Source of the DNA: a virus
DNA length: 64,000 nucleotides
Virus record (IMG/VR): IMGVR_UViG_3300027987_000382
Coordinates: 62,001-126,000 of that record
Reading direction: 5' to 3' (one strand)
Part shown: positions 7,601-56,875 of the stretch, in pieces
Numbering within the stretch: position 1 is the first letter of the stretch
Layout: each line of letters begins with the position of its first letter
Program-made: the position numbers and the translations under genes
Notes under the pieces: model-generated
Databases searched by the model: none
The model's input: the letters and a program-made list of their open reading frames with translations, nothing else
Told to the model about the DNA's origin: nothing

Positions 7601-8129
7601 CACTCTGAAGCATGTGTCGAACACCGAAGTGATTCGGCGTTTGCTGATTAAGTATTTTGTCGACAAGGGATTCTTCGAGAGCTTCGACCGTCAACTCTAT
7701 CCTGCCGCTATGCAGGACCTCCCGTTCGTGGTTCCGGCTCTGGCCAGCAAAATTGAGGTTGTCCCCCACGCAGAAAACATCGATACGGCACTCGGCAAGG
7801 CCGTGATTGGATGGAACCTGTTCTGCCTTGGTAATCAGAGGATGTATCTCGGCGAGACACATCACAACAATCTGCAGGATTTGGCGAGGCAGATTAAGAG
7901 CGGCATGATTATGCCGGAAGGGACACAATCGTCAGCACGTCGCCAAACGACTCCGCGAAGAGTGGTTGCTTTCTTGACGCGGGTGCTTGGCGACCATCAG
8001 GCTGGCTACGTGGATCTTGCTCCGATCACTAGGCCGGTTTCCCAGCCGGGCGATGTCTACGGTGCCCGTCGCAATGCGATGAGTGGTATGCCGCAGCAGT
8101 TCTTCACCCGGTCTGGTTACGGCACCTAG
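7581..8129 (+). CDS. Hypothetical protein, 182 aa
   Basis: Unrecognised. It overlaps the preceding gene by 20 bases. The first two-thirds looks globular alpha/beta; the C-terminal tail is basic and Gly/Ser/Gln-rich, ending R-S-G-Y-G-T. It converges on the next gene, with the two stops overlapping by four bases. No motif assignable. Confidence 0.55.
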   Translation: MDSRTVDTLKHVSNTEVIRRLLIKYFVDKGFFESFDRQLYPAAMQDLPFVVPALASKIEVVPHAENIDTALGKAVIGWNLFCLGNQRMYLGETHHNNLQDLARQIKSGMIMPEGTQSSARRQTTPRRVVAFLTRVLGDHQAGYVDLAPITRPVSQPGDVYGARRNAMSGMPQQFFTRSGYGT

Positions 8130-9442
8130 TTCTTGGGCACCAGTCCGTGGGCGAGGCACACGGTCCTGATGTTCTCCATGTAGATGTTCACTGACCGGGT
8201 CGTAATCCCGAGAAACATCGCGATGTGATTCTTCTTCGGTCGGTCGTCACCAAATCGTTCTGAAAACTCGTCGTAGACATCGCCGATGCCGCATTGGATG
8301 TCGAAGATCTTTTGACAGTCACCTTCTGGCAGCGACTCTCGTACAGCGATCATCACGTCCGTGGCATCGATTGTTGCGATGTGATCGTCCTGGTCCATTT
8401 TCTGTGCTCCAACGGTCCTGAACGAGAGCTGGCTGATCGTGAAGCTGTCACTTTCATCATCGCTCCCGCTCTTGGTGTGGTTATCGAGAACCAGGACGTG
8501 TTCCGGCTTGGAGACGTACGCTTCTAGGTCTCCGGCATCCGCGTTTTCAACGACCTGAATCTCTGACGGATTGCAGAGGACTTCAATCCCAAGTCCTGTT
8601 GCTTTCTTCCGCAATACGGCAAGCTCGGCCGTGAGTTCAGGCGGTGTGAGGAGACCGACAACGTTGATGGTGTATCGTCCATTGGACGGGTTGTCAACGT
8701 GCGAGTAGTTGAAGTCACATTTGAGGCGTGACAGCTGACCGATGATCTCTTCCGTGATCACCTTGTCGGCACGTCCGACGATTTTCTGTGGCTCCTTGCG
8801 GTGCTCTTTTCGGACGTTCTCTGCAAGTTGCTGGCGGAAGTAGTTCCAGACGAATTCGCCGAAGAATTTGACGAGCTGGGTGTCGTCATTGATGATGTCG
8901 TTCGGGTTTTCGTACTTCTTCTCGCCTGGAATCCAGTCGATGGGCGATTCGCACTTTGGTGCTCGCTTCGTCTGGTCGAAGTATTTGTAGCTGTCCTGGA
9001 AGACGTCGAAGGTGACGTAGCTGCCGACTTCGAGGTCGGTGTCACCGGCGTCTGTCACGCGGACTTGCTTACAGTTGGGGCATTTGTCCGCTTGGCGGTT
9101 GATCTCGCGTGGGACGCCCTGTTGCGTGATCCAGGTGTCGGAGCCGCAAGCTCGGCAGTGGAAGGTGTACTTGCGGTGGTAGAATAGCTCGACGGTCCCC
9201 TTCCAGACCGCGATTTGGTACTCGATGTCGCCGCACTTCTTGTCGCTGGCGTAGTCGGCACCGATTGTGTTACCAAGCTCTTCGATGACACCTGCTCGGT
9301 GTCTGGCCATTCCAGGATGGGTGGCGACGTACTCCACGATGCTTTCGACGTGGAGCTTTTCATCTTCGGTCAGGTTCGCCATCGTTACATTGGCGAGTGA
9401 ACCCCTGAGATAGAGTTCGGGCATTTGGCGTACGAGGGCCAT
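8126..9442 (-). CDS. Zinc-ribbon protein with C-terminal HTH, 438 aa
   Basis: Start set at the ATG at 9442 because on the minus strand it follows GGAGGAATTC, a strong ribosome site; a GTG 14 codons upstream is also open. A four-cysteine zinc ribbon (C-R-A-C-G ... C-P-N-C) lies in the first third. The last ~60 residues contain I-A-M-F-L-G-I-T-T-R-S-V-N-I-Y, which looks like a helix-turn-helix followed by a final helix. It diverges from the gp55-like sigma gene. A regulator or transcription-associated protein is a fair inference; the exact family is unknown to me. Confidence 0.6.
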   Translation of the reverse strand: MALVRQMPELYLRGSLANVTMANLTEDEKLHVESIVEYVATHPGMARHRAGVIEELGNTIGADYASDKKCGDIEYQIAVWKGTVELFYHRKYTFHCRACGSDTWITQQGVPREINRQADKCPNCKQVRVTDAGDTDLEVGSYVTFDVFQDSYKYFDQTKRAPKCESPIDWIPGEKKYENPNDIINDDTQLVKFFGEFVWNYFRQQLAENVRKEHRKEPQKIVGRADKVITEEIIGQLSRLKCDFNYSHVDNPSNGRYTINVVGLLTPPELTAELAVLRKKATGLGIEVLCNPSEIQVVENADAGDLEAYVSKPEHVLVLDNHTKSGSDDESDSFTISQLSFRTVGAQKMDQDDHIATIDATDVMIAVRESLPEGDCQKIFDIQCGIGDVYDEFSERFGDDRPKKNHIAMFLGITTRSVNIYMENIRTVCLAHGLVPKN

Positions 9443-9570
9443 GAATTCCTCCGGTTGGGATAGTACGTCCTTGAAACGTTGCACATGTTGTAGTAATTAG
9501 TAGCACGTCCCGCGAATACATCCGTATTTGGGGGAGTACCTTCCGGTCGTCTTGTTACAAGGGGAACACG
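9443..9570. promoter_or_regulatory. Divergent intergenic promoter region
   Basis: About 130 bases separate the start of the minus-strand zinc-ribbon/HTH gene from the plus-strand gp55-like sigma gene, so promoters for both should lie here. A short AT-rich stretch (GTTGTAGTAATTAGTAG around 9486-9502) is the most promoter-like part. AAGGGGAA near 9559-9566 is the likely ribosome site for the sigma gene. I do not see convincing -35/-10 pairs of the host vegetative type. Confidence 0.35.
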
Positions 9571-10350
9571 ATGAGTCAATATTGCGACAGCAAGGTTTTG
9601 GAACAGAACTGGTTCAACTGGCTGCTGTCTTCGTCCGTTCCGGAACTCGAGCCGTTCCGTAAGGCGGGAGTTTTGTGGACGAAAGTCGTGGGCACTGTTA
9701 GGCGGGATGACGGGACGGAAATCCTCCGTCACGGAGTGCCCTTGGCAGATCCATCGTACCCTACCAGAGCCCATTGCATTGCTTTGGGGCATCCGGTGTA
9801 CTTGAACAGTTACAATGGTGTTCCGCAGTCTGCTGGTACTGTCTTCATCGCCGGGGAGCCGACCCCCGTTACCTTGTTCGATCTCGTCAGCGAGCTGCAT
9901 CTCCTTTCGGACGCGTGGTTTCACAACCTCGGGAATCCACTGAGTCAACATGAGACCCTCCCGCACATCGAGGTCAATGGGTATATTCGGGAGGTGCCAG
10001 AAGAGGTATCTTGGCACGCGATCCTGGGCGACATCGACAAGATCTGCCAGGGGATCGCGATGAAGTTCAAGCAGCCGTCAGAAGAGGAGAGATTGGACTT
10101 GGCGAATGAAGCCCTACTCCAGGTCACCAACAAGCTTGTCAATCGCAAGCTTGTGTACACTCCGGGTAAGGCACCAGTCTTCAATCTTCTCACAACGACG
10201 ATCCACCGCTGTATGTATTCGATTATGAATCGGCGGACCAACAGAAGGCAGGGTCAAGCCAAGCTGCTAGAAGATGCCCAAGCAGGCATCCTGCCAGACT
10301 CACAACGGTCATTACGCACGCCGACGCGACGAACCATTAGATCACACTGA
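9571..10350 (+). CDS. gp55-like late sigma factor
   Basis: 259 aa; T4 gp55 is shorter (185 aa). Residues ~170-230 contain L-D-L-A-N-E-A-L-L-Q-V and G-K-A-P-V-F-N-L-L-T-T-T-I-H-R, then M-N-R-R-T-N-R-R. This matches sigma region 2 as found in gp55-type proteins, where the F-x-Y/L-x-T helix contacts the -10-like late promoter. The N-terminal ~150 residues are an unrecognised extension. Family role: directs host RNA polymerase to late genes, usually together with a gp33-like co-activator and the sliding clamp. The assignment rests on motif resemblance. Confidence 0.6.
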   Translation: MSQYCDSKVLEQNWFNWLLSSSVPELEPFRKAGVLWTKVVGTVRRDDGTEILRHGVPLADPSYPTRAHCIALGHPVYLNSYNGVPQSAGTVFIAGEPTPVTLFDLVSELHLLSDAWFHNLGNPLSQHETLPHIEVNGYIREVPEEVSWHAILGDIDKICQGIAMKFKQPSEEERLDLANEALLQVTNKLVNRKLVYTPGKAPVFNLLTTTIHRCMYSIMNRRTNRRQGQAKLLEDAQAGILPDSQRSLRTPTRRTIRSH

Positions 10351-10497
10351 AGGTTTCGTGTCAATACCGGATACAGAGCGTGCCATCTCCTTCAAATACA
10401 TCCGGAGTGTTTCTCTCGAACAACGTTGATCCCCTCTCGATGCTAGCACGTATTTGTACGTTAGGGAGCGAGATCACAAGTAAGCGAGATTCCTCCA

Positions 10498-10755
10498 ATG
10501 ACAGATCGAGCACCCACGGAGGGACAGCCACCAGCTGCGGTGAAAGAACTTCTGGCAGACCACCAGGAAGTCTTGGTCGTATTGCTTGACCCAGACACTA
10601 CCACTGAAGGCGAATCTACAATAGCATGTTTCATGAAGCTCGAAGAGAAAAGCCGATTGTCAGCTTACCTCCAAAAGCTTCTGCAGCAGTTATTGAAGAC
10701 AAGCAGTGCCAAATCAGGTGGTCACATCGCGACTCAAACCACAATTAGTCCGTAA
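10498..10755 (+). CDS. Hypothetical protein, 85 aa
   Basis: Small protein with a predicted helical C-terminal half (L-S-A-Y-L-Q-K-L-L-Q-Q-L-L) and an acidic Thr/Glu-rich middle. It begins at an ATG at 10498 and overlaps the next gene by 50 bases. The 147 bases before it, after the sigma gene, hold no convincing gene. Product unknown. Confidence 0.45.
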   Translation: MTDRAPTEGQPPAAVKELLADHQEVLVVLLDPDTTTEGESTIACFMKLEEKSRLSAYLQKLLQQLLKTSSAKSGGHIATQTTISP

Positions 10756-11733: not shown

Positions 11734-12162
11734 ATGCGTGGTAGAATATATGTGGGCACTAGCCTTCGCAACGCGAAGAGAGCAAATGAGCTTCAACAGC
11801 GTTTCAGAGACGCTGGTTGCGAGATAACGTACGATTGGACTACGCACGGACAAGTATATACTGATGCGGAGCTAGAGGAGTTTGGAGTCGAAGAAGAACG
11901 CGGGGTTGAATCAGCCGACGTGTTCTTTATGGTGTTCCCGGCTCGTAACGGCTCGCATTGTGAGCTTGGTTTGGCACGAGGTTTTGGGGTAAAAATCGTC
12001 TTGTTGATCGAAGAAGAGCACGAGAAGAAGACGTTCTACTACTTACCGAAAATCGCGAACAGACCAGAGGTTTCGCGTTTCACCAACGAGGACGAAGCCG
12101 TTCAATTTACTCTTGATTTCCTGGATACCAAATATGAGCGGTGCAATTCTCAACCGGCTTGA
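11734..12162 (+). CDS. Nucleoside 2-deoxyribosyltransferase-like protein
   Basis: 142 aa. R-I-Y-V-G-T-S-L-R-N at the N-terminus, D-W-T-T-H-G in the middle, then G-V-E-S-A-D-V-F-F and G-S-H-C-E-L-G-L-A follow the layout of the nucleoside 2-deoxyribosyltransferase fold (PF05014/COG3613). In that family the conserved Glu after the G-x-H/T (here H-C-E-L-G) is the nucleophile. Family reaction: exchange of bases between deoxynucleosides or hydrolysis of the glycosidic bond. It lies three genes before the PurZ-type gene, which suggests a nucleotide-salvage or modified-base role. Overlaps the next gene by 29 bases. Confidence 0.65.
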   Translation: MRGRIYVGTSLRNAKRANELQQRFRDAGCEITYDWTTHGQVYTDAELEEFGVEEERGVESADVFFMVFPARNGSHCELGLARGFGVKIVLLIEEEHEKKTFYYLPKIANRPEVSRFTNEDEAVQFTLDFLDTKYERCNSQPA

Positions 12163-12844
12163 AATCGATGTCATGCAAGCAAACGAGCTTGTCGAAGCTT
12201 CCGAGCTTGCCTCAAAATACAAAATGCCAGCCCTCATAGTTCACCCGGATCTTGCCTCAGAGGCTCAGATCTATCGCGGTCGGACGAGAGGGAGGTACGC
12301 ACTGATCACGCCAATCGATTGGCCGAAAGGTGAGACGTTCGGGCAGAACAAACTTCGCGGCCTTTCAACTGACGCCCTCGACGCCGATGGTTTCGAGATT
12401 CTGTTGACTGGCGGCAAATCGGTGACAGATACCAGGAACGAGGCCAAATACCTCACAGAATTCCTGAAGCAGCATTTGTCAGAGACAATCGAGGTCAGGT
12501 TCGTCCTCGGCTCTAATATGCGTGATCACCAGAACGTCTTGCAGATGTGTGAAGCACTGCGTGGCGTCAGAACCCCAGCGTATGTCAGAAATGACACACA
12601 GCTCAAGTTGCAGGTTAGCAAGGCTAACCCAGACACTCACAATGCCTTGATGGAAGAAATCCGAAAGATAATCAAGGTTCCGATCAAGCTGAGTGGCAAC
12701 ATCACAGGCGTCAGGGCCATTACTTCATGCAATGATGCATCACGTTTTGCTGTCAATCTTCTGCAGGCCAAAAATGTGGTGAAAGAACTCCAACAGCAGC
12801 CTGAAGAATTACGGCAGCTGTTGGAGAGTCAAGATGCAACATGA
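12134..12844 (+). CDS. DeoC-like class I aldolase fold protein, putative
   Basis: 236 aa, starting at the ATG at 12134. Strands such as A-L-I-V-H-P-D-L-A, Y-A-L-I-T-P-I-D-W-P, G-F-E-I-L-L-T-G and the late V-P-I-K-L-S-G-N-I-T follow the beta/alpha-barrel order of deoxyribose-phosphate aldolases. The last matches the position of K-x-x-G-G-I-R. The Schiff-base lysine expected on strand 6 (K-T-S-T-G) is not evident: the aligned stretch reads Y-V-R-N-D-T. It may have another activity or bind phosphate only. It is adjacent to the deoxyribosyltransferase-like gene, supporting a deoxyribose-linked role. Moderate confidence in fold, low in reaction. Confidence 0.45.
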   Translation: MSGAILNRLEIDVMQANELVEASELASKYKMPALIVHPDLASEAQIYRGRTRGRYALITPIDWPKGETFGQNKLRGLSTDALDADGFEILLTGGKSVTDTRNEAKYLTEFLKQHLSETIEVRFVLGSNMRDHQNVLQMCEALRGVRTPAYVRNDTQLKLQVSKANPDTHNALMEEIRKIIKVPIKLSGNITGVRAITSCNDASRFAVNLLQAKNVVKELQQQPEELRQLLESQDAT

Positions 12845-13217
12845 GCATGTGATCTGTCCACATTGCGGTGGCAACATTGGATGGGAATTCGTCCGGGCGG
12901 ACATCGAAACACGATTGTCCGAAGGAATACCGGATGGTCCGTACCATTGTTATCATTGCGACAGGTCATTCACTCTTGTTTCAGACGGGAATTTGACGGT
13001 CGAAAATACTGGTAGAGTTAATCTGAAAGAAAGTCTCCCAGTATTAGAAAAAGGAACGACGGTACTACTAAACAATGAAGAACACCCTTGGCACAACGAA
13101 ATCGCTCTGATCTGTGATCGGAAGCACAAGTTCTACCGTCTGGAAATTCGTGGGAAGAGGCTTTGGGTACCGGAAGAATGGGTAAAAACCGATGAATCAC
13201 TTGCTGACTCAGATTAG
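12834..13217 (+). CDS. Zinc-ribbon hypothetical protein, 127 aa
   Basis: The N-terminus holds C-P-H-C-G-G-N and then C-Y-H-C-D-R, a classic two-knuckle zinc ribbon. A C-terminal stretch with L-W-V-P-E-E-W-V follows. Overlaps neighbours on both sides (11 and 26 bases). Function not assignable; nucleic-acid or protein binding is typical for such ribbons. Confidence 0.6.
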   Translation: MQHEHVICPHCGGNIGWEFVRADIETRLSEGIPDGPYHCYHCDRSFTLVSDGNLTVENTGRVNLKESLPVLEKGTTVLLNNEEHPWHNEIALICDRKHKFYRLEIRGKRLWVPEEWVKTDESLADSD

Positions 13218-13578
13218 TGAGTTAGGCGAGGATGCTGATCTGCTCACAAGACATGATGATTGGCTTGAGACGCAACGGAATGCCCTACAAGGTGATCTTG
13301 AACAAAAGGCGACTGAACTAAGAGCCGTCCTTCTTGCTCAACGTATCAAAAGACTTCTGCAGCAAAAGAATCTGGTCGCTGTTCAGCACCTGATTCGCAG
13401 CAGCGAAGGCAAGGTCATCGACATCGTCATACGGATCATGAACCTGCCTGACGCACTTCAACATCTCCTCGAGAAGCCAGTCGACACCCTCGACGAAGTC
13501 AATGCCGCAGCTCAAGTCCACGGATGGGACCGAGACGGCTATGACATCCCCGGCTCGCAAGCTCTCCGCTCCGCATAA
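13192..13578 (+). CDS. Hypothetical helical protein, 128 aa
   Basis: Leu/Gln/Glu-rich, largely helical with coiled-coil character (L-E-Q-K-A-T-E-L-R-A-V-L-L-A-Q-R). Not recognised. I looked for a MazG-type E-E-x-x-E / E-x-x-D metal site because of the PurZ-type gene that follows, and did not find one. Confidence 0.5.
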   Translation: MNHLLTQISELGEDADLLTRHDDWLETQRNALQGDLEQKATELRAVLLAQRIKRLLQQKNLVAVQHLIRSSEGKVIDIVIRIMNLPDALQHLLEKPVDTLDEVNAAAQVHGWDRDGYDIPGSQALRSA

Positions 13579-13656: not shown

Positions 13657-14826
13657 ATGCAAAGTCGTCGATTCAACGTCGTAACAGACGGCCAATGGGG
13701 TAGCTGTGGCAAGGGCCTCATCACCACCGCCCTCGCCGCTCGATACCGCCCCGAGATCATCTCGACGACAAACATGGCGAACGCCGGGCACACCGCCGTG
13801 CACGAGAACGGCGAAGACAAATTCGTCGCCAAAGCACTCCCATCAGCTGCGATTCTCCGCCAATGGATAGCCGGATACGACCCACACATCGTCGTCGGCT
13901 GCAGTGCGGCATTCACGATCGAGCAAATGCACGACGAAATCCAACTGACCGGATCAAACTACCAGCTCACGATCCACGAAAGAGCTGGTGTCATTACCGA
14001 AGCACACAAGGCCGCAGAAGGTAGCCTCGAGACCGGTACAAAGCACGTTGCCAGCACCATGCAAGGCTGTGGAGCATTCCTTGCCGACAAGATCATGCGA
14101 CGCAAAGATCTCAAGCTCGCTCGAGACTACCCAGAACTCAACAGCCACATGCCAGAGCATCTCGGCAAAAAGATCGACAACATCAACCCGGCAATCAGGG
14201 ACGCGGTCGCCGGAATGAGCCTACCACGTGCTCTCGCCACGCTGATGCACCTGTTCGACATCACAATTCTGCACGAAGGAGCCCAAGGATTCTCGCTGGA
14301 CATCAATCACGGCTCGCACTACCCACAGTGCACAAGTCGTAGCACCACGGCAATGCAGAACTTGGCTGACATGGGATTGAACCACACCCATGTCGGCGAC
14401 ATCTATCTTGTCATCAGACCGTTTCCGATCAGAGTGGGGAACGTCATCGAAGAAGGCAAGACTGTCGGCTACTCTGGTGATTGCTACGACGATCACGAAG
14501 AGACCACCTGGACCGAAGTTGCACAACAATGCAACGCACCGCCAGAAGTGATGCAGGGCGAACTGACCACGGTGACAAAGCGTCTACGACGCGTCTTCAC
14601 CTTCTCTGAAAAACAATTGCGAGAAGCTGTTGCCATCAATGGTGCAACAAAGATCGCCCTCAACTTCGCCAACTACATCGACTGGGCCTGCTACGGCACG
14701 AGTGAATATCGCGAGCTGCCGACGAAGGTCGTAGATTTCATCACTCGCATTGAGGATATCGCCGGTATTCCAGTCACCGTGGTTGGAACCGGTCCACACA
14801 ACGATCACGTCTGCTTCCTGAGTTAA
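13657..14826 (+). CDS. purZ: PurZ-type adenylosuccinate synthetase homologue
   Basis: 389 aa, clearly of the PurA fold. N-A-G-H-T keeps the catalytic His (His45), E-G-A-Q-G and L-D-I-N-H-G-S are conserved, and T-T-V-T-K-R-L-R-R matches the aspartate-binding loop. PurA has G-D-E-G-K-G in the P-loop; here it is G-S-C-G-K-G, with Ser16 replacing the catalytic Asp. This swap is the hallmark of phage PurZ, which joins dGMP and Asp to give the precursor of 2-aminoadenine (Z). The T-K-L-D block that reads GTP guanine in PurA is N-F-A-N-Y-I-D here, consistent with another phosphate donor such as (d)ATP. Start: ATG 13657, with AAAGGAGA just upstream. It could instead be a divergent PurA, but the active-site change argues against that. 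Confidence 0.75.
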   Translation: MQSRRFNVVTDGQWGSCGKGLITTALAARYRPEIISTTNMANAGHTAVHENGEDKFVAKALPSAAILRQWIAGYDPHIVVGCSAAFTIEQMHDEIQLTGSNYQLTIHERAGVITEAHKAAEGSLETGTKHVASTMQGCGAFLADKIMRRKDLKLARDYPELNSHMPEHLGKKIDNINPAIRDAVAGMSLPRALATLMHLFDITILHEGAQGFSLDINHGSHYPQCTSRSTTAMQNLADMGLNHTHVGDIYLVIRPFPIRVGNVIEEGKTVGYSGDCYDDHEETTWTEVAQQCNAPPEVMQGELTTVTKRLRRVFTFSEKQLREAVAINGATKIALNFANYIDWACYGTSEYRELPTKVVDFITRIEDIAGIPVTVVGTGPHNDHVCFLS

Positions 14827-14911: not shown

Positions 14912-15742
14912 ATGGGTGGAGAAACAGTACAATCTAGAAGTGGGCGAACGAGAGATACGCTCCGAGTCGCCGCTTATCTTGAAGAGGTTGGAGAAGACCC
15001 AGCAACCTCTTGTGGAAACCTATTAGAATTCAGGATTCCGTACGTTGCGTTGAAGCATGTCTGGACCGGGAACGTAGATTCTCTTCCCGACAACGCTTAC
15101 CAGCGGCTCCGCAAAACCATCTCAGAGCATGAGATGACGGTGGTTCTGATCGCTAGCGATCTCGGCAGCGATCCAGCCGATTCCCTCAGTAAAATCGGTG
15201 AATCACGGATCGATCACGTCTTCAATCTCGCCTCCTATTTCAAATCCCCGTTTGTCAGAATTGGTATTGGCACCGAATGTAGCCAGAAATGTGCCACTGC
15301 TATTGACGAATGGATGGCGAAGATCTCCACGAAGGCTATCAAGGCCAACGTGACGCCACTGCTCGAAATCACACACAACACTTATATCAACACGCCAAGT
15401 GGCGTCGCCAATCTACTGCTAAAACACAAGCGGTGGAAAATTCTCTACGATCCTGTCCAATTCATTCTACGACAGAATCAAGATCCGTTTGTGAAATACT
15501 GGACTCTGCTGAAGAACAGCGTTTCGGCTATCGATGTTCGCGATCTGAAGATAGGTAAAGGATTCAAGCCGTCTGGGTTTGGTAATTCCAGGATCGACTT
15601 AACGATTAAGGACGCTATCGGCAGCGGCTACCAGGGCTGGTACATAATGGAGCCGTCCCTCGGAAGGCGTCATGGCGACGCTCTGACGAAAAAGGACACG
15701 TTTAAAATGGCTCTCGACGCCTTTGATGCTATCATAGAATAG
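14912..15742 (+). CDS. Sugar phosphate isomerase/epimerase-like TIM-barrel protein
   Basis: 276 aa from the ATG at 14912 (GAGG at 14904-14907 upstream). Y-V-A-L-K-H-V-W-T-G-N-V, then V-V-L-I-A-S-D-L-G-S, V-R-I-G-I-G-T and a final W-Y-I-M-E-P-S-L-G follow the xylose-isomerase-like TIM-barrel family. In that family ELR-x-x-W-x-x-NV and I-A-S-P-I-G are typical. The metal ligands of active isomerases are only partly evident. Upstream, another frame is open from 14829 to 15026, starting two bases after the PurZ stop, and overlaps this start; a frameshifted N-terminus cannot be ruled out. Substrate unknown, presumably a sugar or sugar phosphate. Confidence 0.6.
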   Translation: MGGETVQSRSGRTRDTLRVAAYLEEVGEDPATSCGNLLEFRIPYVALKHVWTGNVDSLPDNAYQRLRKTISEHEMTVVLIASDLGSDPADSLSKIGESRIDHVFNLASYFKSPFVRIGIGTECSQKCATAIDEWMAKISTKAIKANVTPLLEITHNTYINTPSGVANLLLKHKRWKILYDPVQFILRQNQDPFVKYWTLLKNSVSAIDVRDLKIGKGFKPSGFGNSRIDLTIKDAIGSGYQGWYIMEPSLGRRHGDALTKKDTFKMALDAFDAIIE

Positions 15743-15783: not shown

Positions 15784-15999
15784 ATGGCTGTCAATGTCAA
15801 CGAGGCAATCGTAAAGATCAAAGAGGCCGGTTCATCAAACGTCCGAACCGTGCCGATGCCAGGCCAGAATGTCAATTCTGGCCAATACCAGATCGAAATC
15901 AATCAGGCTGGAACGTGGGTTCCAGTCGCAACGGGGATCAGCAAGAAAATCGCAGAGGACATTATCAGCCAGGCGACCAACAGGGTCATATTGGGATGA
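15784..15999 (+). CDS. Hypothetical small protein, 71 aa
   Basis: Compact, beta-rich-looking protein with a C-terminal helix (K-K-I-A-E-D-I-I-S-Q-A). TGGAG at 15773-15777 provides the ribosome site for the ATG at 15784. No known family. Could be a small structural or accessory virion protein, but nothing shows this. Confidence 0.5.
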   Translation: MAVNVNEAIVKIKEAGSSNVRTVPMPGQNVNSGQYQIEINQAGTWVPVATGISKKIAEDIISQATNRVILG

Positions 16000-16009
16000 G
16001 GTACCCAAA

Positions 16010-16459
16010 ATGGCTCGACGAAACAAAGAACGCATTTCGTCGGTCTTGGAGCTTTCCCGCTACAAGGTCGGCGAAACAGTCTGGTGGGTGATCCTTCGGA
16101 ACACAGAACCAGTTCCGGACATCTCTGAAGAAGACCGTTGGATGGAAAGCCACCATCCAAAGGCTCTCTACGAACGTGGTCCATACCAACGCTTGTGGAC
16201 CAGCAAAGCCATGCTTCCGAAGCTGCAGCATATGGACTTCGGGATGATGGTGTCGCTCCTCACCGCAGAATTCAAAGTTGAACCGTTCACCATCGTAGAA
16301 GTCGTTCGCAGCAGAGACACAGCCGAATTCTTCTACTCGAACGCCGATGACGAATGGATGCCAGAATCAAGCCTCTTCTGCACCGACATCGCGGCCCGTC
16401 GTGAACGAAATCGCATTATGAGGCTCATTAAAAAGTGGGCAACCAGCCAGTCCACTTAG
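16010..16459 (+). CDS. Hypothetical protein, 149 aa
   Basis: The ATG at 16010 begins M-A-R-R-N-K-E-R. Aromatic-rich (V-W-W-V-I) with a basic C-terminal helix (R-R-E-R-N-R-I-M-R-L-I-K-K). Not recognised. Ends six bases before the transaldolase start. Confidence 0.55.
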   Translation: MARRNKERISSVLELSRYKVGETVWWVILRNTEPVPDISEEDRWMESHHPKALYERGPYQRLWTSKAMLPKLQHMDFGMMVSLLTAEFKVEPFTIVEVVRSRDTAEFFYSNADDEWMPESSLFCTDIAARRERNRIMRLIKKWATSQST

Positions 16460-16464
16460 GCGGC

Positions 16465-17154
16465 ATGATGAAGATATACGCCGATGGATCAGATCCAGAC
16501 GAAATGGTGGCATTGACCGAAAACCGCACAATCTCCGGTTTCACCACCAACCCTACCCTCATGCGGAAAGCAGGAATCACCGATTACGAACAATTCGCCA
16601 AACAAGTCCTACAGCGAATCCCGCACCACCCAATCTCATTCGAAGTTTTCGCCGACGACCATTCAGAAATGGAACGGCAAGCACATAAGCTAGCCTCCTT
16701 CGGCGATAACGTGTTCGTTAAAATCCCAATCACCAACACAAAAGGCGAGACGACCACCCACTTGATCAAACGGCTCCTGGACTCAGGAATCAAAGTCAAC
16801 GTCACAGCAGTTCTAAGCAGCCGACAAATTAACGAAGTGACGCACTTCCTAGCGAGCGAAACCAGAGCCATTCTCTCTGTCTTCGCAGGACGAATCGCCG
16901 ATTCAGGTGTCGACCCAAAGCCCCTCATCAAAGAAGCTCTTGGACTAGCAGCTCCCAACGTCGAAGTTCTTTGGGCGAGCTGCAGAGAGATCTACAACGT
17001 GTACGAAGCCGATTCTATCGGTTGTCACATCATCACCGTCCCCAACAATCTGATTCCAAAATTGGCGTTACGTGATAAAGATCTGGATGAATTCTCTCTC
17101 GAGACTGTCAAGATGTTCTACGACGACGCCGAGAGCAGCGGATTCGTTTTATGA
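16465..17154 (+). CDS. Transaldolase (TalC/FSA subfamily)
   Basis: 229 aa, the length of the small transaldolase/fructose-6-phosphate aldolase group. G-F-T-T-N-P-T-L is the family N-terminal signature, and F-V-K-I-P-I-T-N places the Schiff-base lysine at Lys86. V-N-V-T-A-V-L-S and I-L-S-V-F-A-G-R-I-A-D-S-G are further conserved strands. Family reaction: transfer of a dihydroxyacetone unit, for example making sedoheptulose-7-phosphate from F6P and E4P. Cyanophages carry related enzymes to shift host carbon flow. Here it precedes a heptose-kinase-like gene with a 4-base overlap, so supplying sedoheptulose-7-phosphate for heptose synthesis is an attractive inference. Confidence 0.85.
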   Translation: MMKIYADGSDPDEMVALTENRTISGFTTNPTLMRKAGITDYEQFAKQVLQRIPHHPISFEVFADDHSEMERQAHKLASFGDNVFVKIPITNTKGETTTHLIKRLLDSGIKVNVTAVLSSRQINEVTHFLASETRAILSVFAGRIADSGVDPKPLIKEALGLAAPNVEVLWASCREIYNVYEADSIGCHIITVPNNLIPKLALRDKDLDEFSLETVKMFYDDAESSGFVL

Positions 17155-18116
17155 TCCTGACCAGAACGCCATTTCGCATCACCCTTGGTGGCGGCGGCAC
17201 AGACATACCCTCATATTACCAGCACAACGGTGGGCTGGTATTGTCGATGGCGATCGACAAATACGTCTACATCACCCTCAAGCCAGATGCCTTTGAACAT
17301 CTCTGCAAAGTCCGATACTCGGAAATCGAGATCGTCGACAACCTCTCTGATCTGAAAAACACAAGAGCCAGAGAAGCACTCATAGCTCATGATCTCCTAG
17401 CAGTCGAGATCAATACTTGTGCCGATCTCAACCACAGATCTGGCCTCGGCTCATCCGGCTCTTTCCTGGTCGGCCTATTGAAAGCGATCAGAGAGTACAA
17501 GCAACTTGATAGCTCTCCACACACAATAGCCGACGAAGCTTGCACAATTGAAATCGAAAGACTCAATGAACCGGTCGGCAAACAGGATCAATATATTGCT
17601 GCCTTTGGCGGCGTCAAGATTTTGAAGATCTCCAAAAGTGGTTCCGTCGAAGTAAGTCCGCTCGAGATTGATCATGCTGCTCTAATCCAGAACATGCACA
17701 TCTACTCGTTGGGCGTCTACCGCGATGCGTCCAGTGTTCTGGCAACTCAACAGAAGATGGGCGGCACCACCAAACAAACGCTCGACACGATCATGGAGTT
17801 TGGAGAGAGGACGATCGAACTTCTGTCGTCTTCAGAATTCGACGAATATGGCCGTCTACTTGATGCTTATTGGACCGAAAAGAAAAAGCTTTCCAACAAG
17901 GTGTCGATCCCTATCGTAGACAAGATCTACGAAGAGGTAAAGGGATTCGGTGTCCTTGGTGGCAAAATAATTGGTGCTGGCGGAGGAGGGTTCTTGCTGT
18001 TATATATAAATCGAAGGCACGCTGAACTTGAACAATTCATGGCGAGCCGGGGTCTGCGGAGACTGCGGTACGAAGCAGACTTCACAGGCAGCAAGATCCT
18101 AGGAAATTTCTTATGA
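17151..18116 (+). CDS. GHMP kinase, HddA (heptose-7-phosphate kinase)-like
   Basis: 321 aa. The N-terminus T-P-F-R-I-T-L-G-G-G-G-T-D and the P-loop-like H-R-S-G-L-G-S-S-G-S-F mark a GHMP sugar kinase. E-P-V-G-K-Q-D-Q-Y-I-A-A-F-G-G is the block typical of D-glycero-D-manno-heptose 7-phosphate kinase (HddA/WcbL). K-I-I-G-A-G-G-G-G-F is the C-terminal GHMP motif. The family phosphorylates heptose-7-phosphate at C1. A GmhA-like isomerase and a HAD-nucleotidyltransferase lie in the facing operon, giving adjacent pathway steps. Start overlaps the previous stop by four bases. Confidence 0.8.
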   Translation: MILTRTPFRITLGGGGTDIPSYYQHNGGLVLSMAIDKYVYITLKPDAFEHLCKVRYSEIEIVDNLSDLKNTRAREALIAHDLLAVEINTCADLNHRSGLGSSGSFLVGLLKAIREYKQLDSSPHTIADEACTIEIERLNEPVGKQDQYIAAFGGVKILKISKSGSVEVSPLEIDHAALIQNMHIYSLGVYRDASSVLATQQKMGGTTKQTLDTIMEFGERTIELLSSSEFDEYGRLLDAYWTEKKKLSNKVSIPIVDKIYEEVKGFGVLGGKIIGAGGGGFLLLYINRRHAELEQFMASRGLRRLRYEADFTGSKILGNFL

Positions 18117-18997
18117 AGATTCTCGTGACAGGCGGCCGTGGTTTTATCGGCACCCACTTGGTACGAAGATTGACGCAGCAACACTCCGTGCGAGTCATCG
18201 ACAATCTCTCATCAGCCAGCCTACCAAAGGTGCGAGACGTCGAATATCATTGCTACGACATCCGAAATTTCGATGATATCGAACCCTTGTTCGCCGGTGT
18301 CGACGGCGTCTTTCACCTCGCGGCAGAGGCAAGAATCCAAGCAGCAATCGACGATCCAAGAAACACCGCCGAAATTAATATCCTCGGCACCGTCAACGTT
18401 CTGGAAGCGTGCAGGATCAACAATGTCCCAAGAATTATCAATTCAAGCACCTCGGCGATTTACGGTCTAACCGATCAATTTCCAACTTCTGAAGACGTGA
18501 AACCTGATTGCCTCAACCCGTACGCCTCTAGCAAGCTCGCCGCAGAGGAGATGGTGCGATGTTACTCAAGTCTTTACGGCATCAAGTCTCTCAACCTCAG
18601 ATACTTCAACGTCTTTGGGGAAGAATGTCCCGTCACTGGCCCATACTCGCTCGTCGTCGGTCTGTTCTTACAACAACGTAGCAATGGCGAAAGCTTAACC
18701 ATTGTCGGAACCGGCGAGAGCAGGCGTGATTTCGTCCATGTTGGCGATGTTGTCGACGCCAACATCAGAGCAATGAGCTGCAAACTAGAAAAGAGTGGGG
18801 AGCAGGTCAATATTGGCTCTGGGAGTAATATATCGGTTCTGGACGTAGCAAAAGCGATATCGGACAATATGGTCTTCGTCGAACCACGGCCAGGGGAAGC
18901 CAAAGAGACCTTAGCGGACGTATCACGAGCAAAAGAATGGCTAGGCTGGGAGCCGAAAGTCAACCTTTTGGACTGGCTTCAAAGAAGCAGTCATTGA
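18113..18997 (+). CDS. NAD-dependent sugar epimerase/dehydratase
   Basis: Extended short-chain dehydrogenase of 294 aa. The NAD loop is T-G-G-R-G-F-I-G at the N-terminus, catalytic S-S-T-S-A-I-Y-G is followed by Y-A-S-S-K (YxxxK), and L-R-Y-F-N-V-F-G-E is the usual substrate-domain signature. Such enzymes epimerise or dehydrate nucleotide sugars; GalE, heptose epimerase or 4,6-dehydratase activities cannot be told apart by eye. It is slightly short at the C-terminus. It is the third gene of the transaldolase-kinase operon (4-base overlap) and converges on the FkbM gene with 38 bases of overlap. Confidence 0.85.
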   Translation: MKILVTGGRGFIGTHLVRRLTQQHSVRVIDNLSSASLPKVRDVEYHCYDIRNFDDIEPLFAGVDGVFHLAAEARIQAAIDDPRNTAEINILGTVNVLEACRINNVPRIINSSTSAIYGLTDQFPTSEDVKPDCLNPYASSKLAAEEMVRCYSSLYGIKSLNLRYFNVFGEECPVTGPYSLVVGLFLQQRSNGESLTIVGTGESRRDFVHVGDVVDANIRAMSCKLEKSGEQVNIGSGSNISVLDVAKAISDNMVFVEPRPGEAKETLADVSRAKEWLGWEPKVNLLDWLQRSSH

Positions 18998-19586
18998 TGT
19001 TGGCCATTCCAATAAAGCGATAGCCCTTCTCAGCCATATACTCGATCATCCTCTTCTTGCGGTAATCGAGTGATGAAGTCTCAACTCTGATGAATCTTGG
19101 CGGATTCTTAGCGAAGTCGAGCCCATTCATGGCTTCGTATTCATAGCCTTCCACGTCCAGGGACAAAAGGTCGATACGATCAATACCGTGCTGGTCGATA
19201 ATCGACTGCAGAGTTCTAGCCGGTACGTGAACGACAGTCGGCTTCACCGCTTTCTCCTCAGCGGCCGTCCTCTGATGGACATCGTAATAATCGAGCGGAA
19301 TTGTGATCTGCCCGACAAGACTGTCATCGATCCCTATTTCTGCGAAATTCCCCGGAATTGTTGCTTCGCTATAATCGAAAGCCACTAATGCACAGTGTTC
19401 GAAGATATTCTTGGATGAGCGATTGGCTTGACATTCTGAGAGCCGTTGTTTGTTTGGTTCAATCAGCAATCCATGCCAACCCATCATTTCTAAACGAATA
19501 GTGTTAGATTGGGCGAGGCCGTTATTCGCACCGGCCTCGATGTAGAAACCATTGTTGAAGTCCAGAAATTCATCCATGTAATTCAC
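18960..19586 (-). CDS. FkbM-family methyltransferase
   Basis: 208 aa. F-Y-I-E-A-G-A-N-N-G is the SAM-binding loop, L-L-I-E-P-N follows, and L-S-L-D-V-E-G-Y-E is the FkbM signature. These enzymes O-methylate sugars and polyketides. Last gene of a six-gene minus-strand operon, overlapping the GmhA-like gene by 17 bases. A role in decorating the glycan made by the island is likely. Confidence 0.85.
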   Translation of the reverse strand: MNYMDEFLDFNNGFYIEAGANNGLAQSNTIRLEMMGWHGLLIEPNKQRLSECQANRSSKNIFEHCALVAFDYSEATIPGNFAEIGIDDSLVGQITIPLDYYDVHQRTAAEEKAVKPTVVHVPARTLQSIIDQHGIDRIDLLSLDVEGYEYEAMNGLDFAKNPPRFIRVETSSLDYRKKRMIEYMAEKGYRFIGMANINDCFFEASPKG

Positions 19587-20136
19587 ACAACCAGTTAACT
19601 ACGAGATGCCACACGATTCCTTGCCACTCCTCCGCGTGAGGCGTAATTCTTTTTTTCTCAACAATAGGAATCAGAACGCATGTGTCGCCATGGAATCTAG
19701 CATAACCACCATCTCGCGAAACGATCGATAGGATTTTGGCTCGTTGCGATTTCGCATAGTCGATCGCCTCAACGATGTTGTGCGATGTTGTCAACGAGCC
19801 ACCGCCGACAGATAGAACGAACAGAGCGTCGCGTTCATTCATCGACGACGTCTTGAGCCATTGCGAAAAGCTCGTGCTCCAACCATCGTCGTTGATCCTC
19901 GCCGTTAATTCAGCCACATTATCTGTGACGGCGTAGCATTCGATACCGGCGATTTTGCGGAAATCATTAACGGCATGAGAACAGTTAGCAGCACTGCCAC
20001 CGACACCAACAAAGAAAATTCTGCCTTTGTTGTTGCGAATTTCAGCGATTGATGTGACGAGATCACTGATCTGAGAGCGGTCTATCTTTTTGGCGATCTC
20101 GATCACCTCAGATAGATATTGGTCAACGTAAGTCAT
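19570..20136 (-). CDS. gmhA: Phosphoheptose isomerase-like SIS protein (GmhA-like)
   Basis: 188 aa, the length of GmhA. F-F-V-G-V-G-G-S-A-A-N-C-S-H-A-V-N-D-F matches the GmhA phosphate-binding and catalytic region (G-N-G-G-S-A-x-D-A-x-H-x-x-x-E), though the Glu is not obvious. L-F-V-L-S-V-G-G-G-S is the second SIS loop and the C-terminal Q-G-I-V-W-H-L is present. Family reaction: sedoheptulose-7-phosphate to D-glycero-D-manno-heptose-7-phosphate. The operon also holds a HAD-nucleotidyltransferase, and a heptose-kinase-like gene faces it. Confidence 0.75.
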   Translation of the reverse strand: MTYVDQYLSEVIEIAKKIDRSQISDLVTSIAEIRNNKGRIFFVGVGGSAANCSHAVNDFRKIAGIECYAVTDNVAELTARINDDGWSTSFSQWLKTSSMNERDALFVLSVGGGSLTTSHNIVEAIDYAKSQRAKILSIVSRDGGYARFHGDTCVLIPIVEKKRITPHAEEWQGIVWHLVVNWLCELHG

Positions 20137-20756
20137 TTTTTCAACATCACATGGAAACTGTCGCCATACCGAACTTTATTCTTGAACGGCAGGTCGGTTA
20201 TTACGGAAAAGTGCTCTGGGAGTAGGACATTGAACCAGACATCCTTCGGATATACCGACTGATGCAGAACATGGCCTTCGACCACGTCTGGGATCGGGGC
20301 GATACTGGCACAAAAGATCGCGTCGTCCGCCATGTGCTTTTTGATATTGTCGAAGAACGGTCGCAAATCGTGCGAGGCGATGTGTTCCACGACCTCCCAG
20401 GAAGTGACCAGATCGAAAAGAATCTGGTTTCCTTCGTCATCAACGATCTGGTATGGCTTGGTGGCGTCACACGTGAAAAGGCAAACGTTGTGGAACTGCG
20501 GCCAATTGGCACGAGCATGTTTCACGCTGTAGTCGCTTCCTTCGATTCCAACGGCCATGTGGCCTCTATTGTTGAAGTCGATGGTCAGTTGCCCGCCAGA
20601 ACACCCAACATCCAACGTCTTGATCTTCCTGCCGCCGAACCATTCCTCGATCTCACGGATGAAACCGGGGTCCGTGGTGTTGTCGCGTTTCGTTCCCCAA
20701 GGGAAGATGTGGTCCGGTGAATCATAAGCTACCGGATGATCTGTAATGACTTTCAT
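20133..20756 (-). CDS. Class I SAM-dependent methyltransferase
   Basis: 207 aa. Motif I is L-D-V-G-C-S-G-G-Q-L, motif II region A-V-G-I-E-G-S-D, motif III-like T-S-W-E-V-V-E-H-I. Resembles methyltransferase-11/23 type enzymes that act on small molecules or glycans. Overlaps both neighbours by four bases in the minus operon. Acceptor unknown. Confidence 0.8.
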   Translation of the reverse strand: MKVITDHPVAYDSPDHIFPWGTKRDNTTDPGFIREIEEWFGGRKIKTLDVGCSGGQLTIDFNNRGHMAVGIEGSDYSVKHARANWPQFHNVCLFTCDATKPYQIVDDEGNQILFDLVTSWEVVEHIASHDLRPFFDNIKKHMADDAIFCASIAPIPDVVEGHVLHQSVYPKDVWFNVLLPEHFSVITDLPFKNKVRYGDSFHVMLKK

Positions 20757-21424
20757 TGGATCAGGAACCCTACTTGAGAATAATGTTCGTGAATTTGATA
20801 TGAAAGAGGCTTCGCCTTTAATCCGGTTTCAATCAAGAACTCGGCGAAAGCTTTCACCTCATGTTCTCGATCTCTGTTATGAGGATAACCGCACCAATCA
20901 TCAAAGCACATTACCGTGCCAGGTACGATCTTGTCGAAAAAGGCCCCAAGGATCGTCTTACAAGAGCTGTAAAGATCCGAGTCGATGTGCATAAATGCCA
21001 CAAGCTCAGAATGTTCTTTCACGAACTGAGGAAGCGTATCCTCAAACCAGCCCTTGACGAACCTGACATTCTTCGGCCAGTCTTCCCACACTTTGCCGTG
21101 GATCACGTTCTCACCTCGGAAGATTCGTTCTGGAATCTTGCCACCAAGCGAGAACGTTCCCTTCGGATTTGTCGGAGTCCAATCCTCTGGTAGCCCTTCG
21201 AAACTGTCAAATCCGTAAATCGTCTTGTCGGGATTGCAGTTGGCGATCGTCCCCAGTGATTTACCCTGGAAAACCCCGAATTCCATCCACAAGCCGTTCA
21301 ACTTGACGTGCTTGAAGCAGTGGCTGAAATGAGTCCTGTTGCAATCGCCGTGGATATGCGGGAATTTCGGTTCCGATTTCTCCAAATCGGCCAGTAATTC
21401 GTCTATTTTCTCATTGATGTCCAT
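20753..21424 (-). CDS. TylF/MycF-like methyltransferase
   Basis: 223 aa from the ATG at 21424 (M-D-I-N-E-K). The longer frame upstream lies inside the neighbour. W-M-E-F-G-V-F-Q-G-K-S is the SAM loop, Y-G-F-D-S-F-E-G-L-P-E-D-W is the hallmark of TylF/macrocin O-methyltransferase-like enzymes, and M-H-I-D-S-D-L-Y and C-F-D-D-W-C-G give the metal-site Asp residues. Such enzymes O-methylate sugars on natural products and capsules. Overlaps the next upstream gene by 14 bases. Confidence 0.8.
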   Translation of the reverse strand: MDINEKIDELLADLEKSEPKFPHIHGDCNRTHFSHCFKHVKLNGLWMEFGVFQGKSLGTIANCNPDKTIYGFDSFEGLPEDWTPTNPKGTFSLGGKIPERIFRGENVIHGKVWEDWPKNVRFVKGWFEDTLPQFVKEHSELVAFMHIDSDLYSSCKTILGAFFDKIVPGTVMCFDDWCGYPHNRDREHEVKAFAEFLIETGLKAKPLSYQIHEHYSQVGFLIQ

Positions 21425-55073: not shown

Positions 55074-55363
55074 TGTGCACTGTCTTCCATCTGATGGACT
55101 TCGACAAAGTTGAACGCTACAACCTTGTCGTAAAGCCCGGACCGTTCTCTGCCGACTCGTGGGAATTGCAAGACGAAGTCGGCAGACCGGTCCGAGAAAT
55201 GGTATCCTACGCCATGTCATCCGATGCTGTATCTGAGGAGCATCAAGTCGTACTTAAACGGAAGGACGACAGCCTCCTCAAACTAGCACTAGTCGGAGTC
55301 AGTTCATGGCGGAATTCGCAAAGCAGCTCGAAGCCCTCAGATGGAAGCGGTTCTCCGCCCTAG
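55073..55363 (+). CDS. Hypothetical protein, 96 aa
   Basis: ATG overlaps the previous stop. Beta-rich N-terminal two-thirds, Ser/Pro-rich end. Overlaps thyX by 58 bases; the tail coded in the overlap is low-complexity and probably a by-product of the thyX start. Unrecognised. Confidence 0.5.
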   Translation: MCTVFHLMDFDKVERYNLVVKPGPFSADSWELQDEVGRPVREMVSYAMSSDAVSEEHQVVLKRKDDSLLKLALVGVSSWRNSQSSSKPSDGSGSPP

Positions 55364-56217
55364 GCACCGGCGAGGTCTGTCTCGTTGACGTCATGGGCGA
55401 TGACAGTGCAATCGTCCAAGCAGCCCGAGTCAGCTACGGCGAAGGAACCAAAAAGGTCTCTGACGATCGCACGCTAATCCGCTATCTCATGCGGCACCGG
55501 CATACGACCCCGTTCGAAATGTGCGAGGTCAAACTCCGAGTCAGAGTACCGATGGACTGCTGGCGGCAATGGATTCGCCACCGCACAGCCAACGTCAATG
55601 AATACAGCACTCGCTACAGCGTCGCCATCGACGACTGTCAAATCACCAGCCCGACAGAATGGCGGTCACAAGCCACAACCAACCGCCAAGGCTCCGGCGA
55701 CTTTCTCAATGAGGAAATCGGCCTCGGCCTCACATTGGCCGAGACAGAACTACAAAAGCAAGCCCGCGATGTCTATCAAAACAGACTCGATGCTGGCGTC
55801 GCTCGAGAACAAGCTCGCAAAGATCTTCCGCTTAGCACTTTCACTGAAGCGTACTGGAAGGTCGATCTCCACAACATGTTCCACTTCCTCTCTCTCCGCA
55901 TGGATTCTCATGCACAGAAAGAGATTCGAGAATACGCGACCATCATCGGCAAACAAATCATCAAACCACTCTACCCACTCGCGTGGGAGGCATTCGAAGA
56001 CTACCGTCTCGGTGCTATGTTCCTATCACGGCTGGATATTGGCGTCATCCAGCGGCTTAACGAAATGGCACGCTCCGAACGCGGCTACACAGAACCGGAC
56101 TTTATCGTCGCTCAAGATTCCAGCTGGAAAGAACTTGAGCGTTGTCGTGAACGAGACGAGTGCTTCGAAAAGCTCGCTCGCCTCGGTATCATAGAAGTAC
56201 CAATCATCGCTGCGTGA
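55306..56217 (+). CDS. thyX: Flavin-dependent thymidylate synthase
   Basis: 303 aa. R-H-R-T-A-N-V-N-E-Y-S-T-R-Y-S starting at residue 91 is the ThyX motif (R-H-R-x7-8-S). T-P-F-E-M-C-E and L-H-N-M-F-H-F-L-S-L-R-M-D support the FAD and dUMP sites. Makes dTMP from dUMP with methylene-tetrahydrofolate and NADPH. Next to dUTPase, which supplies dUMP. Confidence 0.95.
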   Translation: MAEFAKQLEALRWKRFSALGTGEVCLVDVMGDDSAIVQAARVSYGEGTKKVSDDRTLIRYLMRHRHTTPFEMCEVKLRVRVPMDCWRQWIRHRTANVNEYSTRYSVAIDDCQITSPTEWRSQATTNRQGSGDFLNEEIGLGLTLAETELQKQARDVYQNRLDAGVAREQARKDLPLSTFTEAYWKVDLHNMFHFLSLRMDSHAQKEIREYATIIGKQIIKPLYPLAWEAFEDYRLGAMFLSRLDIGVIQRLNEMARSERGYTEPDFIVAQDSSWKELERCRERDECFEKLARLGIIEVPIIAA

Positions 56218-56242
56218 GGACATTGTGATGAAGGAGCAACAA

Positions 56243-56875
56243 ATGACAGAGTGGTTGCAATTGAAGCGTCTAGAGCGTAACAATCTTCCACTACCCAAGT
56301 ACGAAACAGAGCACTCAGCAGGCATCGATTTCAGCGTCTGCCTAACACGAACTTGCAAAGAATGCTTGCCCGGCGGATCGAAGCGAAAATTCCTCGCAGT
56401 CGATAAAGGTGGACACGGATTCGGCCGCCACCACTTTGGCGAAGAAAATGTTCCAGACATCATCCAGTGCCCCAACGGTCCAGACAAACTTGCGGTCGTC
56501 ATACAACCGCGAGAAACCTTGATGCTACCGCTAGGCTGGATCGCAGAGTTTGGAGCCAACTTCGTCCTCAAAATCCACGTCAGATCCTCGGCAGGGCTCA
56601 ACGGACTGATGCTGGCAAACGGCACTGGCATCGTCGACCCAGACTATCGCGGCGAGTTATTCGCCTGCCTCTGGAATCGGACAGACGGCCCAATCCAGAT
56701 CAAACACGGACAACGCGTAGTCCAAGGAGTCATGCTCGCCTTCAATCAGGCGATTGTCACAGAAGCCAAAGAAGTGTCGGAAACAGGTCGCGGAGACGGC
56801 GGATTCGGCTCAACCGGCGATCAACTCACAATTCCGGCACCGGCAGCGGATCCTCCGCCGCAATCAGGCAGTTGA
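56243..56875 (+). CDS. dut: dUTPase
   Basis: 210 aa from the ATG at 56243 (AAGGAG at 56231-56236); an ATG at 56228 also exists. Five trimeric-dUTPase motifs: H-S-A-G-I-D-F-S; R-S-S-A-G-L-N; G-I-V-D-P-D-Y-R-G-E-L; G-Q-R-V-V-Q-G; G-R-G-D-G-G-F-G-S-T-G. An extra Cys/His-containing insertion (C-K-E-C-L, G-H-G-F-G-R-H-H) lies between motifs 1 and 2, making it longer than usual. Converts dUTP to dUMP. Its last 50 bases overlap the minus-strand sulfatase end. Confidence 0.9.
   Translation: MTEWLQLKRLERNNLPLPKYETEHSAGIDFSVCLTRTCKECLPGGSKRKFLAVDKGGHGFGRHHFGEENVPDIIQCPNGPDKLAVVIQPRETLMLPLGWIAEFGANFVLKIHVRSSAGLNGLMLANGTGIVDPDYRGELFACLWNRTDGPIQIKHGQRVVQGVMLAFNQAIVTEAKEVSETGRGDGGFGSTGDQLTIPAPAADPPPQSGS

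What the first reader, a model, noticed from the sequence alone, without database searches (positions are those of the whole stretch)
13657..14826. PurZ-type synthetase: possible 2-aminoadenine (Z) DNA or nucleotide pool
The P-loop of this PurA-fold protein reads G-S-C-G-K-G, with Ser in place of the catalytic Asp, while catalytic His45 and the aspartate-binding loop are kept. The GTP-reading T-K-L-D block is replaced by N-F-A-N-Y-I-D. Established: this Asp-to-Ser swap characterises phage PurZ (aminodeoxyadenylosuccinate synthetase), which makes diaminopurine precursor from dGMP. Inference: the phage may replace or supplement adenine with Z. DatZ, MazZ and DpoZ are not in the window. If they are absent from the whole genome, this would be a partial or alternative Z pathway.
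Basis: partly seen in the sequence, partly recalled or inferred. Interest (0 to 1): 0.9.

Follow-up and report, generated by a model that had tools for sequence, protein, structure and literature searches.

The report
Third-lineage PurZ cassette in large phages
A large uncultivated phage carries a gene for making 2-aminoadenine ("Z") building blocks for DNA, from a separate branch of that enzyme family and set in a conserved gene cassette that lacks the usual Z helper genes, so it may make Z-DNA by a different route from the known Z phages.

Summary
Window 13657-14826 (+) encodes an intact 389-aa PurZ-type synthetase. It keeps nearly all substrate-contacting residues mapped in S-2L PurZ: Ser for the catalytic Asp, the NF-x-N adenine-reading block, His, and the Asp-binding TTVT loop. 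By profile and tree it belongs with PurZ, not PurA or PurZ0. With more than 20 IMG/VR relatives it forms a separate lineage, mostly on large phage contigs (up to 408 kb). DatZ, MazZ/DUF550 and DpoZ are absent from all 146.8 kb of the record, using profiles that recover them in control phages. The replicase is a split Pol III alpha.

The aldolase-like gene was found only beside purZ (18 of 18 contigs). In one relative a very divergent PurZ fills the same slot.

Best reading: PurZ makes the dZTP precursor, and this cassette replaces DatZ/MazZ in tuning the nucleotide pool for a replicase not known to prefer Z. Z in virion DNA is inferred, not shown. New variant of a known kind.

The parts
13657..14826 (+). 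purZ: succino-2-amino-deoxyadenylate synthetase homologue, 389 aa, third PurZ lineage
11734..12162 (+). NDT-superfamily protein (5'-nucleotide N-glycosidase / deoxyribosyltransferase type, DmtZ-like), invariant Tyr6 and Glu77
   Evidence: phrog_12607 2.3e-6; PF05014 in 9/9 family members, best 1.9e-9; PDB profile hits to MilB/BlsM CMP N-glycosidases 5.5e-6; direct profile comparison with DmtZ P = 4e-4
12134..12844 (+). deoxyribose-phosphate-aldolase-fold protein (about 236 aa); Schiff-base Lys position holds invariant Arg151, second active-site Lys (K184) kept
   Evidence: AlphaFold pLDDT 88, Foldseek top hits nearly all DERA, E 1.2e-11, TM 0.72; alignments; no Pfam or PDB sequence hit
12834..13217 (+). 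small protein with a sub-threshold zinc-ribbon match, syntenic in the nearer relatives
13192..13578 (+). 128-aa protein of unknown function, syntenic directly upstream of purZ
14912..15742 (+). TIM-barrel protein (AP_endonuc_2/xylose-isomerase-like), syntenic directly downstream of purZ, fast-evolving
   Evidence: PF01261 2.2e-8
15869..16459 (+). conserved protein of unknown function (relatives about 145 aa), syntenic
56225..56875 (+). dUTPase-family protein, next to thyX; possible but weak counterpart of DutZ
   Evidence: PF00692 8.8e-15; DutZ profile 43 bits, and closer to the Bacillus phage Dut than to DutZ
55306..56217 (+). thyX, flavin-dependent thymidylate synthase (nucleotide supply, context only)
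   Evidence: PF02511 5.5e-50

Best explanation
The gene is a true PurZ of a third, previously unplaced lineage, carried mainly by large tailed phages. It joins dGMP and aspartate, with ATP or dATP as energy source, into N6-succino-2-amino-dAMP. Host PurB and nucleotide kinases (no phage purB was found in this record) then turn this into dZTP. Because the phage replicates with a Pol III alpha enzyme not known to favour Z, and lacks DatZ, MazZ and DpoZ, the A:Z balance must be set in the nucleotide pool. The conserved neighbours are the likely tools: the NDT-family N-glycosidase would destroy (or exchange the base of) a purine deoxynucleoside monophosphate, most simply dAMP as DmtZ does. The aldolase-fold protein would bind or process the deoxyribose-5-phosphate side of that reaction, not necessarily as an aldolase. 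Shown: gene identity, active-site residues, lineage, cassette conservation, absence of the classical helpers from the record. Inferred: enzyme activity, substrate of the N-glycosidase, role of the aldolase-fold protein, Z in virion DNA.
For: PurZ residues conserved in the lineage members aligned: Ser for Asp, V241 (excludes ribose 2'-OH), TTVT loop, and the N/T-F-x-N/Q/D adenine-reading block (mapped with PMC8342488). Tree: the window lineage is one group, 94/99, in 100% of 200 bootstrap trees, apart from PurZ0 (100/99) and from classical PurZ. The cassette order NDT-family, aldolase-fold, purZ, TIM barrel is conserved down to about 54% PurZ identity. The aldolase-fold gene was found on 18 contigs, all with purZ within 10 kb. 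In contig 3300010413_002638 the same neighbours surround a PurZ only about 32% identical to the window's and outside its lineage: the enzyme was swapped, the neighbours stayed. A related subclade (L041, G016) instead has a DatZ-like protein (1.7e-16) and a full-length PolA, as expected if both helper sets serve the same purpose. In PurZ0 phages an NDT-family enzyme, DmtZ, hydrolyses dAMP and makes dZMP (PMC12884076). S-2L already shows that a non-selective polymerase plus pool editing can give Z-DNA (PMC8342488, PMC8065100).
Against: No base analysis exists. NCBIfam's PurZ cut-off is not reached. The NDT-family protein lacks DmtZ's Asp12, needed for dAMP (Arg12 here, variable in the family), so its substrate is unknown, and its family also occurs on contigs where no purZ was found within the fetched flanks. 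The aldolase-fold protein has Arg at the Schiff-base Lys position, so it is probably not an ordinary aldolase. The record is a linear fragment of unknown completeness, so datZ, mazZ or dpoZ could lie outside it.
Confidence: 0.6

Rival explanations
1. PurZ makes dZ nucleotides, but Z only supplements adenine (partial substitution) because the Pol III replicase takes both and no strong dATP destroyer is present.
For: No DatZ, MazZ or DpoZ in the record; Pol III alpha replicase; Klenow does not discriminate A from Z (PMC8342488).
Against: A conserved neighbour of a dNMP-hydrolase family suggests some adenine depletion; PurZ itself can consume dATP (S-2L enzyme, PMC8342488).
Confidence: 0.25
2. 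The enzyme serves the nucleotide pool or an anti-defence purpose (for example dGMP consumption or a further-modified base derived from dSMP/dZMP), and virion DNA has no free 2-aminoadenine.
For: Conserved unknown neighbours (TIM barrel, zinc-ribbon-like, 196-aa protein) could act on the product; no Z-specific polymerase found.
Against: Substrate residues are those of enzymes proven to feed Z-DNA; a related subclade carries DatZ-like and PolA genes; no modification starting from dSMP is known to me.
Confidence: 0.12
3. An ordinary phage PurA (IMP + GTP) with a chance Ser substitution.
For: It shares the PurA fold and matches PF00709.
Against: Ser is invariant across the lineage and the GTP-reading block is replaced throughout; PurZ profile 272 bits against 69 for E. 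coli PurA; the tree joins it to PurZ, though with only one PurA outgroup.
Confidence: 0.03

Closest known systems
PurZ of S-2L / phiVC8 / SH-Ab 15497 (classical PurZ, with datZ, mazZ/DUF550 and, except in S-2L, dpoZ)
   Same: Fold, Ser for Asp, dGMP pocket, N-F-x-N/Q adenine-reading block, Asp-binding loop.
   Different: About 31-35% identity; separate lineage; no datZ, mazZ or dpoZ in the record; large phages, C-family replicase.
PurZ0 system of Ghobes and Wayne (PurZ0, DmtZ, DutZ, DUF5664, DpoZ-1; PMC12884076)
   Same: An NDT-family gene near a PurZ gene and a dUTPase-family gene in the genome.
   Different: PurZ is not PurZ0 (106 against 272 bits); the NDT-family protein is only distantly similar to DmtZ (P = 4e-4) and lacks its Asp12; the dUTPase is about 41 kb away and not clearly DutZ; no DUF5664 or DpoZ-1 match.
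Bacillus phage vB_BpsS-140 PurZ
   Same: Closest annotated phage protein (34.9% identity); that phage also has a dUTPase and a weak DmtZ-profile match (1.8e-4).
   Different: Small genome (55 kb), different gene neighbourhood, outside the window lineage.
Flavobacterium phage MaF61 ORF141 (PQ858689)
   Same: Cultured large phage (168 kb) with a Ser-type, NFVN PurZ homologue and an adenosuccinate lyase gene.
   Different: A separate deep branch of the tree (100/99); purZ lies among structural and RNR genes, not in the cassette.

Membership tests
PurZ | Adenylosuccinate-synthetase fold and homology | tested here: met
   PF00709 4.7e-37; PDB PurZ 7odx 3.7e-34
PurZ | Ser in place of the catalytic P-loop Asp | tested here: met
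   Ser at the S23 position in the window and all 26 relatives mapped
PurZ | Adenine-reading N-F-x-N/Q block and dGMP-pocket residues | tested here: met
   26 of 30 mapped S-2L positions are identical to S-2L or another classical phage PurZ; W for Y21, A for G130, Q for Y203 and V for R244 differ, mostly shared with relatives
PurZ | Groups with PurZ rather than PurA or PurZ0 in a tree | tested here: met
   placement of long branches is unsure and the only PurA outgroup is E. coli
PurZ | NCBIfam NF038379 curated cut-off (300 bits) | tested here: not met
   215 bits; probably marks divergence within the family, since the model presumably rests on the classical lineage
PurZ | Converts dGMP + Asp + ATP to dSMP | not testable with these tools
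   needs an assay
Classical Z-cluster (datZ-mazZ-purZ with DpoZ) | datZ, mazZ/DUF550 and dpoZ in the genome | tested here: not met
   No hit in the 146.8-kb record, while the same profiles recovered them in control phages, some of them held out; record may be incomplete
DmtZ | NDT superfamily with catalytic Tyr6 and Glu (Glu103 in DmtZ) | tested here: met
   Y6 and E77 invariant in 9 sequences; PF05014
DmtZ | Asp12, required for activity on dAMP | tested here: not met
   Arg12, not conserved in the family; by position only, the alignment is weak
Deoxyribose-5-phosphate aldolase (DERA) | DERA fold | tested here: met
   Foldseek E 1.2e-11, TM 0.72; nearly all of the top 50 are DERA
Deoxyribose-5-phosphate aldolase (DERA) | Schiff-base lysine (E. 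coli Lys167) | tested here: not met
   Aligned position is Arg151, invariant in 17 sequences; the second model puts strand 6 at residues 150-151. The first, poorer model put Lys157 there
DpoZ | PolA with 3'-5' exonuclease domain, similar to DpoZ | tested here: not met
   The record's only PolA match is a 439-aa protein, 8 bits to the DpoZ profile, and its family also occurs on contigs without a purZ match

The most novel reading that the evidence does not exclude
A third, independently assembled way to make Z-genomes: large phages in which a bacterial-type split Pol III alpha copies DNA from a pool where PurZ makes Z and an N-glycosidase plus a repurposed aldolase-fold protein remove adenine deoxynucleotides, without DatZ, MazZ or DpoZ.
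Probability: 0.35. Interest if true: 0.82.

Novelty: new variant of a known kind. Interest (0 to 1): 0.62.

Why it matters
Known Z phages have small genomes (about 38-68 kb in the records read here) and a Z-preferring DpoZ or, in S-2L, DatZ plus a PrimPol. A PurZ lineage in large phages with a C-family replicase would widen the size range and replication types compatible with Z-DNA, and would test whether pool editing alone can set the base content of a large genome. The cassette offers two new protein families to assay, and the cultured MaF61 offers a direct LC-MS test of a related, deeper PurZ branch.

Tried and rejected
Ordinary PurA: rejected on residues, profiles and tree. PurZ0: rejected on profile and tree. 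The 439-aa PolA as a hidden DpoZ: its motif C reads HDS like some DpoZ, but it scores 8 bits to the DpoZ profile and its family turned up on 69 contigs, several of 80 kb or more without a PurZ match, so it looks like a general gap-filling polymerase. The dUTPase as DutZ: only weakly similar, so left open. A split-intein explanation of the divided Pol III alpha: no intein signature at the junction. The tblastn search of annotated phages with the NDT-family protein gave nothing, and with the aldolase-fold protein nothing significant. PF18909 (DUF5664) search: nothing in any control either, so uninformative on its own.

Full report
What was found. Window 13657-14826 (+) is an intact 389-aa ORF preceded by AAAGGAG. 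The window is bases 62001-126000 of a 146,839-base linear IMG/VR phage record. The protein matches adenylosuccinate synthetase (PF00709), the phage family phrog_1211 '2-aminooxy adenylosuccinate synthetase' and NCBIfam PurZ at 215 bits, above every PurA model but below that model's cut-off. In the Protein Data Bank it matches S-2L and phiVC8 PurZ about as well as short PurA proteins.

Active site. The ligand contacts published for S-2L PurZ (PMC8342488) were mapped by alignment. The window protein keeps G22, S23 (the Ser that replaces PurA's Asp), G25, N49-T53 with the catalytic His, S131, T132, R146, Q190, C204, T205, R240, V241 (blocks ribose 2'-OH), T273-T276, R280, N305, F306, N308 (as in phiVC8), G335 and P336. 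E. coli PurA has D, T-K-x-D and no TTVT.

Lineage. Annotated phages hold only distant relatives (best 34.9%, Bacillus phage vB_BpsS-140). IMG/VR gave 31 loci in one scan, many on contigs of 75-408 kb and up to 79% identical. In a maximum-likelihood tree the window protein and 23 others form one group (94/99, and in 100% of bootstrap trees), apart from PurZ0 and classical PurZ; MaF61 and three large-phage proteins form a further branch. Several terminal branches are long and E. coli is the only PurA outgroup, so branching order among PurZ groups is unsure.

Cassette. Around purZ, gene order is conserved across the relatives: NDT-family gene (11734-12162), a 236-aa gene (12134-12844), two small genes, purZ, a TIM-barrel gene (to 15742) and a further unknown. 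The NDT-family protein keeps Tyr6 and Glu77, matches PF05014 in 9 of 9 family members, has MilB/BlsM nucleotide N-glycosidases as best PDB profile hits, and aligns with DmtZ at P = 4e-4 in a single direct comparison. DmtZ itself hydrolyses dAMP and transfers its deoxyribose phosphate to Z base in PurZ0 phages (PMC12884076).

The 236-aa protein has no meaningful Pfam or PDB sequence match. Two AlphaFold models (pLDDT 81 and 88) match deoxyribose-5-phosphate aldolases almost exclusively among the top 50 (TM about 0.72, E 9.5e-11 and 1.2e-11). A profile alignment with seven DeoC proteins is collinear over 212 columns but statistically weak (P 0.002-0.02). It places invariant Arg151 at the Schiff-base Lys and keeps the second Lys (K184) in the motif PIKxSGN. 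So it works on, or descends from, something like deoxyribose-5-phosphate chemistry, but should not be called an aldolase.

Association. A collection-wide scan with this protein family found 18 contigs, each with purZ within the fetched 10-kb flanks; several contigs are near-copies, and one purZ is cut by the contig end. The NDT family is wider: of 27 contigs, 17 had purZ in the fetched flanks. On contig 3300010413_002638 the same neighbours flank a PurZ only about 32% identical to the window's, placed outside its lineage. Exchange of the enzyme within an unchanged setting argues that the neighbours depend on PurZ's activity rather than on one protein.

Missing helpers. Profiles for DatZ, MazZ/DUF550, DpoZ (both kinds) and phage PurB, built from known Z phages, find nothing in the record and recover control phages, some held out. 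MazG-family genes were found in 1 of 21 records of this set and HD-domain genes in 4. One of the latter, in the L041 subclade, is DatZ-like (1.7e-16), and that subclade has full-length PolA with no Pol III alpha match. The window's phage has Pol III alpha in two genes, a 439-aa PolA, a separate 5'-3' exonuclease, a gp32-like protein, RecA and a DnaB-type helicase. A dUTPase is present about 41 kb from purZ, not clearly DutZ.

Interpretation. PurZ identity is close to certain (about 0.93). Production of a dZTP precursor is very likely. That the cassette replaces DatZ/MazZ is the best explanation but rests on family membership, conserved order and association (0.6 for the whole reading). Whether Z replaces all, some or none of the adenine is open. 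No paper found in the searched library reports PurZ in large phages, or with an aldolase-fold partner; most subscription papers and all preprints were not searchable.

Noticed in passing
L044 (IMGVR_UViG_3300045256_000294) 6809-10504; L045 8273-10537: PurZ carries inteins at active-site positions: two in L044 (at NAGH|C...HN|TAV and HYPQ|C...HN|CTSR) and one in L045 at the second site.
   Followed up: partly
G000:46115-47539 (-) and 40583-43519 (-); relatives G001-G019: The replicative Pol III alpha is split into two genes at the FLxPxR / MPDID point without intein signs at the junction; the split recurs in many relatives, and in G003 the halves are about 58 kb apart on opposite strands.
   Followed up: partly
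G000:21024-22343 (-); loci L117-L185: A compact PolA (about 400-450 aa, motif C HDS, altered O helix) is found on 69 viral contigs, often with no detectable purZ; G000 also has a separate 5'-3' exonuclease gene nearby (18101-18952).
   Followed up: partly
Flavobacterium phage MaF61, PQ858689 118051-119394 and 129735-131090 (L196): A cultured 168-kb phage encodes a deep-branching Ser-type PurZ homologue plus adenosuccinate lyase; a term search of the paper on it (PMC13269007) found no mention of them.
   Followed up: partly
L043 5299-6609 (-): A homologue of the PurB-like lyase of PurZ0 phages lies within 5 kb of purZ in the L041-L043 subclade.
   Followed up: no
window 16435-22115: A run of sugar-metabolism-like genes (transaldolase-like, GHMP-kinase-like, NAD epimerase, GmhA-like isomerase, methyltransferases, by inspection) follows the purZ cassette.
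   Followed up: no
L048, Dehalococcoidia MAG contig JAUXIH010000023.1: The only hit in the scan of 84,980 prokaryote species genomes is a 35% identical PurZ on an 11-kb contig, possibly phage DNA binned with the MAG.
   Followed up: no
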